A stretch of DNA of 20,238 nt from positions 1 to 20,238 of the IMG/VR virus record IMGVR_UViG_3300046010_006941; one strand, 5' to 3'. Numbering within the stretch: position 1 is the first letter of the stretch; each line of letters begins with the position of its first letter. The notes under the pieces were generated by a model that saw only the letters and a program-made list of their open reading frames with translations, did not search any database and was not told the origin of the DNA. The translations under genes and the position numbers were made by a program. Shown piece after piece: positions 6,757-12,122 of this stretch. Source of the DNA: a virus.

Positions 6757-8438
6757 TATTTACCTTTTAAGGGGTTTGGTATAATTTGTTTTTTTACAGG
6801 CATAGCTGGTTTATATCCAGGTATGTATGTTTGCAAAACAGTAGTCTCAGGCTCAATTTGATCTCTTAACGAGCTAACTAGTAATTCTTTCAAAGTGTTA
6901 GCTGCATTTCGACTTGTCATGATGCTAGGAATTTGAGGCTCAACTAGCATTTTAAAATCTTGATCGGTAAACTTTCCCTCTCTAGTCATAAGCTTAATGA
7001 CAGGAACTAACTGAACTTGTAAAGCTTTTATCGTCTTAGTAGAGTCAAAAGGCTTACCTAATCTAGCAGCAATTCTGGATTGCTCAAAGATTTGATCAGA
7101 GATCTGACTAATACGGTTAATACCTGAAACAAGCTTCGCGTGCTGCTTAAGCTCTTCTCTGGCTTCTTTTCTAGCTGATTCTGGGATTTTAGTTTCAATA
7201 AGTCTTCCAACTTCAGGTAAACTAAGCTGCTGACCTACTTGCATTCTTCTCATCATCTCAGCGTCAGCTTGCTGTGCTGCAACCTGGTTCTTTATGTCTT
7301 GACGTTTAGCCATCATGTTGCTGGTAAACTGCATAAGCTCGCCTTGAGCTTTCATTCCTGCAGTCTTAGCACCAAGCTTTCTAGCTTCCATTTCAAGCAT
7401 AGACATATGATGCAATCTTAACATATTCTCAGCTTCTTTCATACTACCTAGTTTTTTGTAGTAGGCGCTAAGAAGATTGTCCCTATTTTCCATTTCTTTC
7501 TTTTGAGATTCAATATCTCTTTCAATCAAAGTATCTAGAGACTTTTGAACTTGATTATCCGGTCCACCTAATCCGCCGATAAGTAATCCAAGTCCTAATC
7601 TTAGTTTATCTGCAATAGAGCTATAGTTTTGGCTCATGAACCTATTAGGATCAATTTTACCTTCCGCTTGAGCTTTCTCAAGTTCTGCAATCTTGTTATC
7701 GATACCGGCTGTCTTTTGTAAAAGCAAGTCTTCTCTTTGCTTCATGAAGTCTACAGCTTGAGCTGCTGATTGCTCTGTCTGGGCAGCTTCTAACTGAGCT
7801 GCTTCAGAAATCATTCTACCACCTTTTTCGAACAAGTCTAGAGATTTCTCGTACTCAGACTTTCCTTGCGGCGCTTCAGGCATAGCAGCAAGTTGCTGTT
7901 GTCCAGGCTGTTGTCCTTCCAAAGGAAAGTTGTCAATTTGTTCTACAGCTTGTGCGGGCTGAGCTTGTTCCTCAGACCCGAGTAAGCCTTTAGTAAATTG
8001 ACCTACTCCTTTACCGATAATGCCATAAGCTCCGGCTACATCTTTTACACTTTCACCTATAGGGGCGACTGCGGATCTTACAGCTTGTCCTGCTCTTTGC
8101 ATCAAAGGAACTTCAGGTTGAGCCGGCACTTCGGATTCTGAAGGCATACTCTGTGGGGCTTTTTGCTCAATCAATCCTTGGATACCTTCCATAGCTATCT
8201 TCTTTCTATCTTCTTCAGATAGCTCTTCGATAGGCTTTTCTGTACCCTTGTTTAGTTTCTTTACACTCTTCTTATCTCTAAGTTTCTCCAGAGCGCTCTC
8301 GATAGGAATCTCTTTCATTTGTCTTTTTTGTTGGGGAGAGAGACTATCATGAGAGACGTGGATTGTGTGTCCCTCTGGATGTTTAAAAACAGTATGAGTA
8401 GACGTCACGTCTATTTTTTTGAAATCTTTGAAATTCAT
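6756..8438 (-). CDS. Internal virion / ejection protein (560 aa, T7 gp15-like position)
   Basis: The protein has a charged N-terminus, a Gln/Pro-rich linker (~90-190), a long coiled coil broken by a Gly-rich hydrophobic patch at ~278-292 (RLGLGLLIGGLGG), then SLDTLIERDIESQKKEMENR at ~298-318. That last pattern, an (E/N)RDIE(S/A)QK helix after a glycine-rich turn, recurs in podovirus internal or DNA-transfer proteins as I know them. Met-rich helices follow. It sits between the other two ejection-type genes. The start codon overlaps the stop of a 28-aa membrane peptide (ATGA), with an AAAGGA ribosome site inside that peptide's gene; its stop overlaps the next start (TAATG), so translation is chained through this block. 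Confidence 0.7.
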   Translation of the reverse strand: MNFKDFKKIDVTSTHTVFKHPEGHTIHVSHDSLSPQQKRQMKEIPIESALEKLRDKKSVKKLNKGTEKPIEELSEEDRKKIAMEGIQGLIEQKAPQSMPSESEVPAQPEVPLMQRAGQAVRSAVAPIGESVKDVAGAYGIIGKGVGQFTKGLLGSEEQAQPAQAVEQIDNFPLEGQQPGQQQLAAMPEAPQGKSEYEKSLDLFEKGGRMISEAAQLEAAQTEQSAAQAVDFMKQREDLLLQKTAGIDNKIAELEKAQAEGKIDPNRFMSQNYSSIADKLRLGLGLLIGGLGGPDNQVQKSLDTLIERDIESQKKEMENRDNLLSAYYKKLGSMKEAENMLRLHHMSMLEMEARKLGAKTAGMKAQGELMQFTSNMMAKRQDIKNQVAAQQADAEMMRRMQVGQQLSLPEVGRLIETKIPESARKEAREELKQHAKLVSGINRISQISDQIFEQSRIAARLGKPFDSTKTIKALQVQLVPVIKLMTREGKFTDQDFKMLVEPQIPSIMTSRNAANTLKELLVSSLRDQIEPETTVLQTYIPGYKPAMPVKKQIIPNPLKGK

Positions 8439-9842: not shown

Positions 9843-9935
9843 TTACACCTCAAGGACACACGTCCCCTTAAATGCTAGGAATCAACCTTGCACTATGTAT
9901 AACGCCGCACTCTTCTACTATGCTCTATGGCTAAC

Positions 9936-9982
9936 ATTATAACAAACGAGTAAAACTCTGTCAAGCATTTTTTTTATTTTAC
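9936..9982 (-). promoter_or_regulatory. Very strong sigma70-type promoter for the ejection/fibre operon
   Basis: On the minus strand TTGACA (9959-9964), a 17-nt spacer and TATAAT (9936-9941) match the sigma70 consensus at every base. A TGT directly before TATAAT (9942-9944) supplies an extended -10, and AAAATAAAAAAAA (9968-9980) just upstream of the -35 resembles an UP element. The expected start is near 9929, giving an ~87-nt leader before the GNAT-like gene. The leader contains a small GGAC-GUGU-GUCC hairpin just before the GAGGTG ribosome site. No phage-type RNA polymerase promoter is needed to explain expression. Confidence 0.9.
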
Positions 9983-10109
9983 GCGGGAAATAATTGTAAC
10001 TAGTTGAAATTTGGTCAAGTTTAAAAAAATTTACCCCAGGACGATGGGCATTTATCAAGGGAATCATCACGTTAACGGCGGTGGTAGGGGGGTCTAAATA
10101 AAATATATA

Positions 10110-10195
10110 GCAATAGCCATGCCAATGTAAGGGGGGTGCAATAGCTATGCCACACATCGGTGGTCTAGAGTGTGCAGATAGCAACAATCATGCCA
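10110..10195. repeat. Three iteron-like 15-bp direct repeats
   Basis: GCAATAGCCATGCCA at 10110-10124, GCAATAGCTATGCCA at 10138-10152 and GCAACAATCATGCCA at 10181-10195. The first two differ at one base and the third at three or four. The spacing between starts is 28 and 43 bp. The second and third copies are each followed within 7-10 bp by GGTCTA, and the first two are preceded by a GGGGGGT tract at different distances. Confidence 0.65.
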
Positions 10196-10274
10196 CGCTT
10201 TTGGTCTAATTAATGCAATAATAAGGGTTGGTATGCGGATTGCAGAGAGATGGCATCGGGTTTTGCAGTTATAA

Positions 10275-10287
10275 CCGTTTGAAACGG
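10275..10287. promoter_or_regulatory. Perfect CCGTTT-G-AAACGG palindrome (operator candidate)
   Basis: Six-base arms flank a single central base, a form typical of a repressor-dimer site. As RNA it could fold only as a 5-bp stem with a 3-nt loop; on the plus strand TTTTT follows four bases later, so a weak plus-direction terminator is an alternative reading. Confidence 0.4.
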
Positions 10288-10355
10288 CACGATTTTTGTT
10301 AAGCTTCACGCTCAACTCAATCCATCCATTAAATGCTTCATTTCACCCCATTTAT

Positions 10356-10369
10356 CTTAATTTATTAAG
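10356..10369. promoter_or_regulatory. CTTAAT-TT-ATTAAG palindrome upstream of the cassette promoter
   Basis: A perfect inverted repeat with 6-base arms and a 2-base centre ends 24 bp upstream of the plus-strand -35. That placement suits an activator or a repressor of the small-gene cassette. AT-rich palindromes arise easily by chance, so confidence is low. Confidence 0.35.
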
Positions 10370-10393
10370 GATATCATGCACATAAAAAATATA

Positions 10394-10422
10394 TTGACAA
10401 ATCTTATTTTCATTGATATTCT
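10394..10422 (+). promoter_or_regulatory. Sigma70-type promoter of the small-gene cassette
   Basis: TTGACA (10394-10399), a 17-nt spacer and TATTCT (10417-10422), with TGA directly before the -10 (extended -10) and an A/T tract (AAAAAATATA) upstream of the -35. The expected start is near 10429, giving a ~24-nt leader that contains only the ribosome site of the first cassette gene. Confidence 0.85.
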
Positions 10423-10452
10423 GTATTTGTCAGGTACGAAATGGAGGCAAAA

Positions 10453-10590
10453 ATGAGTAAAGAAAAACTAAAATTAATCAGAGAAATCAGACAAATGACC
10501 TTATTTTACAGCATCTCTTATCTAAGCCATCAATACACAATCAACCTAGAAATGATTAAGAGATTAGCAGAAGAAGGCATTTATAACTAA
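10453..10590 (+). CDS. Cassette gene 1, 45-aa helical protein
   Basis: ATG at 10453 follows a strong GGAGG ribosome site (10443-10447), and the frame ends at TAA 10588-10590. The product is basic at its N-terminus (MSKEKLKLIREIRQ), with a central aromatic, partly hydrophobic stretch (MTLFYSISYLSHQYTI) and an amphipathic C-terminal helix (NLEMIKRLAEEGIYN). There are no Cys residues and no recognisable domain. As the first gene after the promoter it is probably made early and in quantity. Function unknown; position among tiny co-transcribed genes suggests a host-interaction or regulatory peptide. Confidence 0.72.
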   Translation: MSKEKLKLIREIRQMTLFYSISYLSHQYTINLEMIKRLAEEGIYN

Positions 10591-10603
10591 TAAGGAGAAT
10601 CAT

Positions 10604-10798
10604 ATGACAAACACACAATTACTAATCAGACTAAACGAAAAGTTAGAAGCAATCCAGTTCAGAAGCATTGATGATGACAGAGCAGCAAGTCAATTCTGGG
10701 AACTAGCGCAAGTAATTAAAATGGTTGAGAAAGGCTTATATACGCCAGCTGAAGTAGAATTAGTGTTGACAAGATACAGATTGAGTGATACAGTTTAA
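10604..10798 (+). CDS. Cassette gene 2, 64-aa helical acidic protein
   Basis: ATG at 10604 has an AGGAGA ribosome site and lies 13 nt after the previous stop. The product begins MTNTQLLIRLNEKLEAIQFR and reads as two or three amphipathic helices, the last being GLYTPAEVELVLTRYRLSD, where the P-A-E-V helix cap resembles DNA-binding or protein-binding helices without matching a family I can name. It has no Cys and no membrane segment. Its composition (Asn, Lys, Glu, Ile) and A/T-rich codons match the other cassette genes and differ from the Ala/Gln-rich virion proteins. Confidence 0.72.
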   Translation: MTNTQLLIRLNEKLEAIQFRSIDDDRAASQFWELAQVIKMVEKGLYTPAEVELVLTRYRLSDTV

Positions 10799-10812
10799 TC
10801 ATGGAGGCAATT

Positions 10813-10950
10813 ATGAGAGACCAATACTTATATGTAGTAGTAGAAATATCCACAGGATTAGTTATTAGGGTATACAAGAATCGTCAGGATATTGATGATG
10901 AGTATTATAGTAATGACTATTCCATTCAACGCACTTATTATTGGAGATAA
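10813..10950 (+). CDS. Cassette gene 3, 45-aa Tyr/Asp-rich protein
   Basis: ATG at 10813-10815 lies behind GGAGG in the same ATGGAGGCAAnnATGAG context as cassette gene 1. The product starts with a beta hairpin-like MRDQYLYVVVEISTGLVIRV followed by a Tyr/Asp-rich tail with IDDEYYSND. The TAA ends at 10950, 2 nt before the next ATG. The strand-turn-strand pattern resembles small beta-folded phage peptides that bind host proteins, but no family can be assigned. Confidence 0.68.
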   Translation: MRDQYLYVVVEISTGLVIRVYKNRQDIDDEYYSNDYSIQRTYYWR

Positions 10951-10952
10951 TT

Positions 10953-11159
10953 ATGACAGACTTAAGATTATTACCAGACAGCGAATTATCAATGATTGTC
11001 CATAATACCGATTACTTATTCAGCTTAAGACATGGCACTGGATTCTATGCTTTGATAGGTAAGTTATTTATCTATCGTCCAATGCAATTAGCTGTGCTTA
11101 TTAAAGATCTGCAAGAAGAAGTGATTGACAAAAAAGCACCTTACGGAGATAATGTATGA
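10953..11159 (+). CDS. Cassette gene 4, 68-aa protein
   Basis: The frame could extend upstream to a TTG at 10941, but the GGAGA ribosome site (10943-10947) sits 5 nt before the ATG at 10953, so that ATG is the start. The product begins MTDLRLLPDSELSMIVHNTD, has a moderately hydrophobic centre (GFYALIGKLFIYRPMQLAVL) and a charged C-terminal helix. The centre is not hydrophobic enough for a confident membrane segment. Its stop overlaps the next start as ATGA. Function unknown. Confidence 0.7.
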   Translation: MTDLRLLPDSELSMIVHNTDYLFSLRHGTGFYALIGKLFIYRPMQLAVLIKDLQEEVIDKKAPYGDNV

Positions 11160-11290
11160 GTGACCATGATTGGAAAACTTGTAAAGATGAAAATTGTAAA
11201 GAATGCTGTATGCATGATGACAATGATCATCTTATATGTTTAAACTGCGGAGCAGAGCTAGATCCCTTTATTGAGGTGGAATGTGAATAA
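11156..11290 (+). CDS. Cassette gene 5, 44-aa zinc-ribbon-like protein
   Basis: ATG overlaps the previous stop (ATGA), with GGAGA 6 nt upstream. The product carries seven Cys: C9, C14, C17, C18, C28, C31 and C43. The pairs C14-x2-C17 and C28-x2-C31 (ICLNCG) form a classical zinc-ribbon knuckle arrangement, and His20 and His25 lie between. Many short phage zinc ribbons bind RNA polymerase, nucleic acid or host regulators, but the target cannot be inferred here. It ends with an acidic tail (FIEVECE). TAA ends at 11290, overlapping the next gene's GTG start region. Confidence 0.72.
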   Translation: MSDHDWKTCKDENCKECCMHDDNDHLICLNCGAELDPFIEVECE

Positions 11291-11360
11291 ACGTATAGCA
11301 CAATACTTGTATTTAGCTGGAATATTAACTACTTACATACTAATGAGGATATTCTTATGA
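11283..11360 (+). CDS. Cassette gene 6, 25-aa single-span membrane peptide (GTG start)
   Basis: GTG at 11283-11285 has a GAGG ribosome site 6 nt upstream (11273-11276), overlaps the end of the previous gene, and its TGA (11358-11360) overlaps the next ATG (ATGA). The product has a basic N-terminus (MNKR) and a hydrophobic core (YLYLAGILTTYILM) ending RIFL, consistent with a single membrane span. The peptide may be functional, or the frame may mainly couple translation of its neighbours. The ribosome site and the overlap at both ends favour a real gene. Confidence 0.55.
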   Translation: MNKRIAQYLYLAGILTTYILMRIFL

Positions 11361-11545
11361 TGATTGATTTCACGGACCCAGGATTATATTATCAAGCTAA
11401 AAAACTTAACACCGACCCAACACTATACGAAAGATATAAGGCAGAAGTGGGCAGAGTTCAGCGCGCGCTTAATCGTCGTGCCTTGTTGGCCCTTTTTATA
11501 TGGGTGAGCCTGTTTCTAAGTTCTCTTATCCATCTTCTAAGATAA
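11357..11545 (+). CDS. Cassette gene 7, 62-aa C-terminal membrane-anchored protein
   Basis: ATG 11357-11359 overlaps the previous stop and follows GAGGA by 7 nt; a second ATG at 11360 is an alternative. The first ~40 residues are polar and helical (DPGLYYQAKKLNTDPTLYER); residues 42-61 are a clear membrane segment (ALLALFIWVSLFLSSLIHLL) preceded by NRR, so the N-terminal part should face the cytoplasm. The last 88 nt overlap a convergent minus-strand gene, so at most one of the two C-termini may be under strong selection. With cassette gene 6 it forms a pair of adjacent membrane proteins. No terminator is visible after it. Confidence 0.65.
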   Translation: MMIDFTDPGLYYQAKKLNTDPTLYERYKAEVGRVQRALNRRALLALFIWVSLFLSSLIHLLR

Positions 11546-11766
11546 CTAGCGCGTTCTTTATGTGTGCCTTTTAATAATTCGTCTTGGGCGCGTCTGATTG
11601 AGTGCTCAACGCGTAAGGATTGATCGGACATATACGCAATTTTATACATCCTGTAGCATTGCTTGGAGCAGTGCAATCGTTCTATTTTAATAGCACCGTC
11701 TGGACTCCAGCGCTCGGGCTTTGAGTACGGTAGATTGCACATATAGCATTGTTTTGTTGGATGCAT
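11458..11766 (-). CDS. Zinc-finger-like basic protein (102 aa)
   Basis: N-terminal residues hold C7-x2-C10 and, 22 residues later, HC33-x3-C37 (LHCSKQCYRMYK), a treble-clef or TRASH-like zinc-finger pattern often found in small phage proteins. The remainder is strongly basic and helical (LRRWIRELRNRLTHIKRANK). The start is ATG 11764-11766, 3 nt after the upstream stop, with GGGGA as ribosome site. It is the last gene of the first minus-strand block. Its final 29 codons lie antisense to the membrane segment of the convergent cassette gene. Nucleic-acid binding is a reasonable guess; an HNH nuclease is not supported because no HNH His-Asn pattern is visible. Confidence 0.65.
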   Translation of the reverse strand: MHPTKQCYMCNLPYSKPERWSPDGAIKIERLHCSKQCYRMYKIAYMSDQSLRVEHSIRRAQDELLKGTHKERASYLRRWIRELRNRLTHIKRANKARRLSAR

Positions 11767-11769
11767 ATT

Positions 11770-12120
11770 TCATCCCCAGCATAGTCGCAGTATTGCCGAA
11801 CCTTTGTCCAAAAATATATCAAACTTAACTGCATTCACCCAGTGCATAACTGTGTTGCAGAACATTCCGCCTTGTTTAATCTTGATGTAAATTGTTATGT
11901 ATTTCTCTTTAGTTACCCTATACTCAGCCTTTTCAGGCATCCAAAACTTAAAAGTAGCAATTACTGTAATAGGACTAAAAGACTTATCACCATCATCAAA
12001 AGCGCCTTTCAAGAACACAGCAAGCTCGCTAAGATTCATCCATTCGATGCTATCAAACTTCTTGTCGTAGTTATTGATTAGCCTGTCGATTCGGCTGGTT
12101 TTGATTAAAGTGAGCTTCAA
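11770..12120 (-). CDS. Hypothetical protein (116 aa, TTG start)
   Basis: I do not recognise this family. The frame starts at TTG 12118-12120 with AAAGG 8 nt upstream, overlapping the end of the nozzle gene; the next in-frame ATG is 27 codons later (MNLSELAVFLKGAF). The product is mixed alpha/beta, with ITVIATFKFWMPEKAEYRVT then ITIYIKIKQGG strands and a C-terminal FDIFLDKGSAILRLCWG. No signal, membrane or enzyme motif is visible. It is linked to the virion operon by gap size (2 nt to the nozzle gene) yet is Lys/Ile-rich like the accessory genes beside it, so it may be part of the accessory cluster. Confidence 0.6.
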   Translation of the reverse strand: MKLTLIKTSRIDRLINNYDKKFDSIEWMNLSELAVFLKGAFDDGDKSFSPITVIATFKFWMPEKAEYRVTKEKYITIYIKIKQGGMFCNTVMHWVNAVKFDIFLDKGSAILRLCWG

Positions 12121-12122
12121 AG

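What the first reader, a model, noticed from the sequence alone, without database searches (positions are those of the whole stretch)
10453..11545. Seven tightly packed tiny genes of unrecognised families
The 45, 64, 45, 68, 44, 25 and 62-aa products are packed into 1.1 kb; the last four overlap one another by 4-8 nt. They include a zinc-ribbon-like protein and two adjacent membrane proteins, with none recognised as a virion part. Such sets in other phages encode host-takeover, superinfection-exclusion or anti-defence factors. Here the set lies among late genes rather than at a genome end.
Basis: partly seen in the sequence, partly recalled or inferred. Interest (0 to 1): 0.6.

Follow-up and report, generated by a model that had tools for sequence, protein, structure and literature searches.

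The report
Hidden tiny-gene operon with sigma-54-like sites
Seven real, tightly packed tiny genes of an uncultured bacterial virus form a separate operon inserted backwards into its particle-building genes, and the DNA that appears to control them carries a cluster of sites closely matching the bacterial sigma-54 promoter, a cluster that also occurs in many other uncultured phages and seems not to have been described.

Summary
Seven overlapping or abutting ORFs lie at 10453-11545, each with a Shine-Dalgarno site; no dinucleotide shuffle (0 of 1000) chains more than two. None matches a known family. (1) The set runs on the + strand, against every virion gene in the window and in the early-gene direction of a 38-kb relative. 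(2) It is an insertion: relatives without it have 113-696 bp between the flanking late genes, while the window and three relatives carry 1.8-3.2 kb more, with a fast-changing set of tiny Zn-ribbon and membrane genes. (3) The noncoding region between the cassette's sigma70-like promoter and a divergent perfect-consensus late promoter holds six sites resembling sigma54 -24/-12 elements (TGGYAY-N5-TTGC). A matrix built from published E. coli sigma54 ChIP-seq sites finds 20 strong sites in five related phages (permuted matrices: mean 0.07, max 3), mostly pointing outwards to the two flanks. Similar arrays of up to 13 sites occur in other uncultured phages, some beside terminase genes. I read the set as an accessory, probably early, host-takeover cassette with a sigma54-responsive or sigma54-binding control region. 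The DNA anatomy is shown; protein functions, timing and sigma54 binding are inferred.

The parts
10453..10590 (+). tiny gene 1, 45 aa, orphan
   Evidence: ORF with SD GGAGG; no family match
10604..10798 (+). tiny gene 2, 64 aa, orphan, predicted three helices
   Evidence: SD AAGGAG; single-sequence model pLDDT 82, no significant fold match
10813..10950 (+). tiny gene 3, 45 aa, orphan
   Evidence: SD GGAGG; no convincing family match
10953..11159 (+). tiny gene 4, 68 aa, orphan, helical
   Evidence: SD GGAG; single-sequence model pLDDT 69; no relative in viral contigs
11156..11290 (+). tiny gene 5, 44 aa, Cys-rich (zinc-ribbon-like); same slot as the ClpX-type finger of relatives
   Evidence: SD GGAG; four aligned cysteines shared with relatives; no profile match of its own
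11283..11360 (+). tiny gene 6, 25 aa, GTG start, one hydrophobic segment
   Evidence: SD GAGGTG; 10 of 25 aligned residues identical to the tiny membrane ORF of L083 in the same slot
11357..11545 (+). tiny gene 7, 62 aa, C-terminal hydrophobic segment; the cassette gene with relatives found by search
   Evidence: about 40% identity to L015 8379-8555(-) and L083 5914-6090(-)
10394..10422 (+). sigma70-like promoter of the cassette, TTGACA-N17-TATTCT with TG before the -10
   Evidence: consensus scan; 10 of 12 matches
10109..10125 (-). sigma54-like -24/-12 site pointing to the late genes, TTGGCATGGCTATTGCT
   Evidence: matrix score 18.6 (E. coli median 16.6)
10137..10153 (-). sigma54-like site pointing to the late genes, GTGGCATAGCTATTGCA
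   Evidence: matrix score 17.6
10180..10196 (-). sigma54-like site pointing to the late genes, GTGGCATGATTGTTGCT
   Evidence: matrix score 19.0
10201..10217 (+). weaker sigma54-like site pointing to the cassette, TTGGTCTAATTAATGCA
   Evidence: matrix score 10.6
10228..10244 (+). sigma54-like site pointing to the cassette, TTGGTATGCGGATTGCA
   Evidence: matrix score 13.4
10284..10300 (+). weaker sigma54-like site pointing to the cassette, ACGGCACGATTTTTGTT
   Evidence: matrix score 10.5
10021..10092 (.). conserved noncoding boxes TTAAAAAAATTTACCCCAGGACGAT and GGTGGTAGGGGGG, role unknown
   Evidence: present at the corresponding place in L006, L015, L083 and L081
9936..9964 (-). late sigma70 promoter, perfect TTGACA-N17-TATAAT with TG, for the late genes beyond the insertion
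   Evidence: same perfect promoter at the same place in L006, L015 and L083
11458..11766 (-). 102-aa Cys-rich gene, convergent with the cassette; overlaps tiny gene 7 tail-to-tail by 88 nt
   Evidence: 48-60% identical relatives in L006, L015, L083
11770..12120 (-). 116-aa gene, part of the insertion in the window and in L006
   Evidence: 52% identical relative in L006
9456..9842 (-). 128-aa late gene, first gene behind the late promoter
   Evidence: directly follows the 991-aa gene in relatives without the insertion, e.g. L022, L044, L066

Best explanation
The seven ORFs form a real accessory operon (a moron-like cassette) inserted into the late operon of a probably lytic phage with an SU10-type capsid protein, between the 991-aa gene and the 128-aa gene. 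It is transcribed against the late genes, in the early-gene direction, from its own host sigma70 promoter (10394-10422), probably early. The late genes cut off by the insertion have their own perfect sigma70 promoter (9936-9964). Between the two promoters the phage keeps an array of sigma54-type -24/-12 sites pointing outwards to both units, so host sigma54-RNA polymerase probably binds there, either at activator-dependent divergent promoters that tie both units to host physiology or as stalled closed complexes. The products (Cys-rich finger, tiny membrane proteins, helical orphans) most likely act on host proteins or the membrane. Late transcription arriving from the right would run antisense through the cassette and could switch it off. 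Shown by sequence: ORFs, strand, insertion, turnover of content, promoter and site matches. Inferred: timing, sigma54 binding, protein roles, switch-off.
For: ORF chain and SD sites beyond chance. Cassette strand equals the early strand of relative G001. Divergent sigma70 promoters, the late one recurring in L006, L015 and L083. Insertion: the 991-aa to 312-aa gene gap is 113-696 bp in relatives without it and 2.2-3.6 kb in L006, L015 and L083. Slot-wise relatives with third-position-biased changes between L015 and L083. E. coli sigma54 matrix: 20 sites of 13 bits or more in five regions, permuted matrices mean 0.07 and max 3, spacer exactly 5. Unbiased logo and TGG-N9-TGC spacing peak. Outward orientation, permutation p 0.0007-0.0016 with related records.
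Against: No expression or binding data. No sigma54 or activator gene in G001 or the other array records searched, so the host would have to supply both; the host is unknown. The strong sigma70 promoters alone could drive both units. No convincing terminator between the units. In L006 two of the weaker sites break the outward order. Five of the seven proteins have no relatives at all.
Confidence: 0.6

Rival explanations
1. The 15-17 bp sites are iterons or operators of a phage-encoded protein (replication initiator or repressor) and the resemblance to sigma54 promoters is accidental; the region is an origin or a regulatory switch.
For: Several copies within 200 bp of conserved noncoding DNA with A-runs nearby, in five related phages; the sites are in both orientations; packed two-way arrays in other phages are unlike ordinary promoters.
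Against: The consensus, the rigid 5-nt spacer, the purine after TGGCAY and the A/T after TTGC are those of sigma54, also under unbiased selection; no initiator gene next to the array; the spacer bases vary freely.
Confidence: 0.2
2. The array is a sponge: many copies of the phage genome soak up host sigma54 (or its RNA polymerase), shutting off the host sigma54 regulon, and the tiny genes are a separate matter.
For: sigma54 RNA polymerase can sit on sites inactive (PMC4591121); arrays of up to 13 tightly packed sites in other phages, often alternating in strand; no activator gene in the records searched.
Against: The window has only four good and two weak sites, and they mostly point outwards to the flanking units, as promoters would.
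Confidence: 0.2
3. The tiny ORFs are spurious, or are ordinary virion or lysis genes.
For: They are very short and have no database matches.
Against: SD sites, shuffles and conserved slots; opposite strand to every virion gene of the window; holin-like and lysozyme-like genes lie elsewhere in G001 (read by inspection).
Confidence: 0.04

Closest known systems
Phage 'moron' / accessory cassettes with their own promoter
   Same: Extra genes between conserved late genes, own promoter, lower G+C, content changing between relatives.
   Different: Described mainly in prophages; here the phage shows no integrase among the genes called in G001, the cassette runs antisense to the operon it interrupts, and it is paired with a sigma54-like array.
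Bacterial sigma54 (RpoN) -24/-12 promoters
   Same: Same TGGCAY-N5-TTGCW element with the same spacing; scores like real E. coli sites (PMC4591121).
   Different: Clustered four to six (elsewhere up to 13) within 200-350 bp, on both strands, in phage DNA; no activator known; binding untested.
Overlapping small exclusion genes of Pseudomonas phage Fc02 (PMC9936078)
   Same: Small overlapping phage genes; its title reports exclusion activity. A functional analogy for the membrane ORFs only.
   Different: No sequence relation tested; that phage is temperate and cultured.
ClpX C4-type zinc finger (Pfam PF06689)
   Same: The L015 protein at the zinc slot passes the Pfam cut-off.
   Different: The window's 44-aa protein does not match; it shares only slot and cysteines.
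T7 Ocr and Gp2, small phage proteins that bind host RNA polymerase (PMC7064336, PMC3778932)
   Same: Precedent for small phage products controlling host transcription (abstracts).
   Different: No sequence relation shown; here the candidate contact with sigma54 polymerase is DNA, not a protein.

Membership tests
phage moron / accessory cassette | absent from close relatives at the same site | tested here: met
   gap of 113-696 bp to the 312-aa gene without it, 2.2-3.6 kb with it
phage moron / accessory cassette | own promoter | tested here: met
   predicted sigma70 promoter 10394-10422; prediction only
phage moron / accessory cassette | own terminator | tested here: inconclusive
   one weak stem at 11549-11567; two such stems found where shuffles give 1.8
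phage moron / accessory cassette | base composition differs from neighbours | tested here: met
   34.6% G+C against 43%
phage moron / accessory cassette | expressed independently of the late genes | not testable with these tools
   needs RNA-seq
sigma54 promoter | GG-N10-GC core with TGGCAY-N5-TTGCW | tested here: met
sigma54 promoter | oriented towards a downstream gene | tested here: met
   late-pointing sites on the late side, cassette-pointing on the cassette side, two weak exceptions in L006; records are related
sigma54 promoter | bound by sigma54 RNA polymerase and activated by an enhancer-binding protein | not testable with these tools
   no activator or sigma54 gene in the array records searched; host unknown
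iteron-type replication origin | direct repeats of uniform orientation and spacing | tested here: not met
   both orientations, steps of 28, 43, 21, 27 and 56 bp
iteron-type replication origin | adjacent initiator gene | tested here: inconclusive
   none recognised among the neighbouring genes, but many are orphans
ClpX zinc-finger protein (tiny gene 5) | PF06689 match above the Pfam cut-off | tested here: not met
   no match for window 11156-11290; met only for L015 9403-9585

The most novel reading that the evidence does not exclude
Arrays of sigma54 binding sites in the control regions of many uncultured phages are a general, undescribed device by which phages exploit or sequester the host's sigma54 RNA polymerase, and the window shows a small version that governs an accessory takeover operon and the late genes.
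Probability: 0.35. Interest if true: 0.85.

Novelty: new variant of a known kind. Interest (0 to 1): 0.6.

Why it matters
Clusters of tiny orphan genes are common in phages. A divergent array of sigma54-like sites controlling one is, as far as the papers held here show, undescribed. If the sites bind sigma54 RNA polymerase, phage gene expression would be tied to, or would disarm, the host's nitrogen, stress and motility regulon. The claim is directly testable with cloned DNA in ordinary E. coli K-12 strains, without the phage or its host.

Tried and rejected
Cultured-phage matches by DNA or protein: none for the region, the capsid, the 991-aa protein or the cassette proteins. Rfam: nothing above threshold. 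Structured leader RNA: three of four pieces fold no better than shuffles, the fourth has z -1.3. Structure prediction: gene 2 pLDDT 82 but no significant fold match; gene 4 pLDDT 69, not searched. Relatives in GTDB genomes: none by the 128-aa gene or the capsid. Sigma54 array in other capsid relatives: clusters of three or more only in L006 and L015. Same array in five cultured phages with related portal or terminase proteins: none. Phage-borne sigma54 or activator: none. Literature on sigma54 promoters or arrays in phages: nothing found in the open-access library; one phage with a sigma54-type regulator gene (PMC3391216) is a different thing.

Full report
WHAT IS THERE. The window is a 20,238-base virus record. 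Every recognisable virion gene runs on the - strand: tail fibre, tail collar and SU10-type major capsid among those named by profiles. Each has a Shine-Dalgarno site, and no shuffle reproduces the chain. The DNA is poorer in G+C (34.6%) than the late genes (43%).

A SECOND TRANSCRIPTION UNIT. In the nearest long relative (L006 = G001, 38,352 bases) the late genes lie on one strand and the polymerase, exonuclease and primase-like genes on the other. The cassette's strand is the early strand. It has its own sigma70-like promoter, and the late genes beyond it have a perfect one pointing the other way. The perfect late promoter recurs at the same place in L006, L015 and L083. Early timing is inferred from strand and promoter, not measured.

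AN INSERTION. In relatives without the cassette the 991-aa gene is followed within 113-696 bp by the 312-aa gene, with the small 128-aa gene between them where it was found. In L006, L015 and L083 the same gap is 2.2-3.6 kb; in the window the insertion spans 9843-12122. IMG/VR yielded only these contigs plus L081, which is cut at the edge. The content changes fast: L083 and L015 share a Zn finger, a tiny membrane ORF, an acidic ORF, a 50-aa membrane ORF and the gene-7 relative; L006 has other ORFs. Of the window's own genes, gene 7 has relatives found by search and gene 6 one found by aligning its slot. Gene 7 overlaps the convergent 102-aa gene tail-to-tail by 88 nt here, 127 in L015 and 133 in L083 (ORF coordinates).

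THE ZINC SLOT. L015's protein before the tiny membrane ORF passes the Pfam cut-off for the ClpX C4 zinc finger, and those of L083 and L006 match weakly. The window's 44-aa protein shares the slot and four cysteines but has no match. A role on ClpX or its adaptors is a lead only.

THE CONTROL REGION. The conserved noncoding stretch between the promoters holds repeated sites first seen as GCAAN5ATGCCA. Their complement, TGGCATN5TTGC, is the sigma54 -24/-12 element. I built a matrix from 42 intergenic E. coli sigma54 ChIP-seq sites (PMC4591121, Table 1) and scored all members. Twenty sites of at least 13 bits fall in the five regions; column-permuted matrices give a mean of 0.07 and a maximum of 3, shuffled regions about 0.2 in sum, and changing the spacer removes the signal. 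Late-pointing sites lie on the late side and cassette-pointing ones on the cassette side, with two weaker exceptions in L006, so they look like divergent promoters; the records are related, so the p-values are soft.

A WIDER PATTERN. With a 6-nt spacer the full scan gave 84 stretches, nearly all with a single pair, and 4 of 84 reached five sites by the matched matrix. Selecting only GG-N10-GC in the other arrays still returns the sigma54 preferences. Some of these arrays lie beside terminase and SU10-type portal genes. Limits: the scan pattern itself selects for such sites, the loci include duplicates, and the count is not a census. Five cultured phages with related portal or terminase proteins had none, and no sigma54 or activator gene was found in the records searched.

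MECHANISM. sigma54 RNA polymerase can sit on DNA inactive until an activator works (PMC4591121). Three uses are possible: activator-dependent divergent promoters, a stalled complex shaping sigma70 traffic, or a sponge. In the window's clade orientation favours the first; the packed two-way arrays elsewhere favour the last. I cannot decide between them here. The proteins are best read as accessory host-takeover factors; which step they act on is unknown.

Noticed in passing
L197 5745-6100, L222 8823-9190 (same array in L169), L209 327-530, L205, L198, L186, L164, L152, L143, L131: Dense arrays of 9-13 sigma54-like sites in unrelated-looking uncultured phage contigs, some on alternating strands about 22-28 bp apart.
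   Followed up: partly
G001 7678-7694 (in L095): A lone very strong sigma54-like site (score 19.5) just before the relative of the window's 560-aa gene, pointing to it; the window has none there.
   Followed up: no
L015 9403-9585 (-): A 60-aa cassette protein that is a stand-alone ClpX-type C4 zinc finger (PF06689, E 3.3e-6, 27.3 bits against a cut-off of 27).
   Followed up: partly
G001 29919-30773 (L096 10919-11773): A ClpP-family protease gene (PF00574, E 5.7e-21) whose N-terminus looks like a lipoprotein signal by inspection, in the early region of the relative.
   Followed up: no
window 11458-11545: Long tail-to-tail gene overlap (88 nt; 127 and 133 nt in L015 and L083) between tiny gene 7 and the convergent 102-aa gene, kept in all three.
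   Followed up: partly
window 10021-10092: Two conserved noncoding boxes of unknown role (TTAAAAAAATTTACCCCAGGACGAT and GGTGGTAGGGGGG) between the late promoter and the sigma54-like sites.
   Followed up: no
whole window: The capsid and the 991-aa protein have no tblastn match in 50,697 cultured-phage records, so the lineage seems uncultured.
   Followed up: partly
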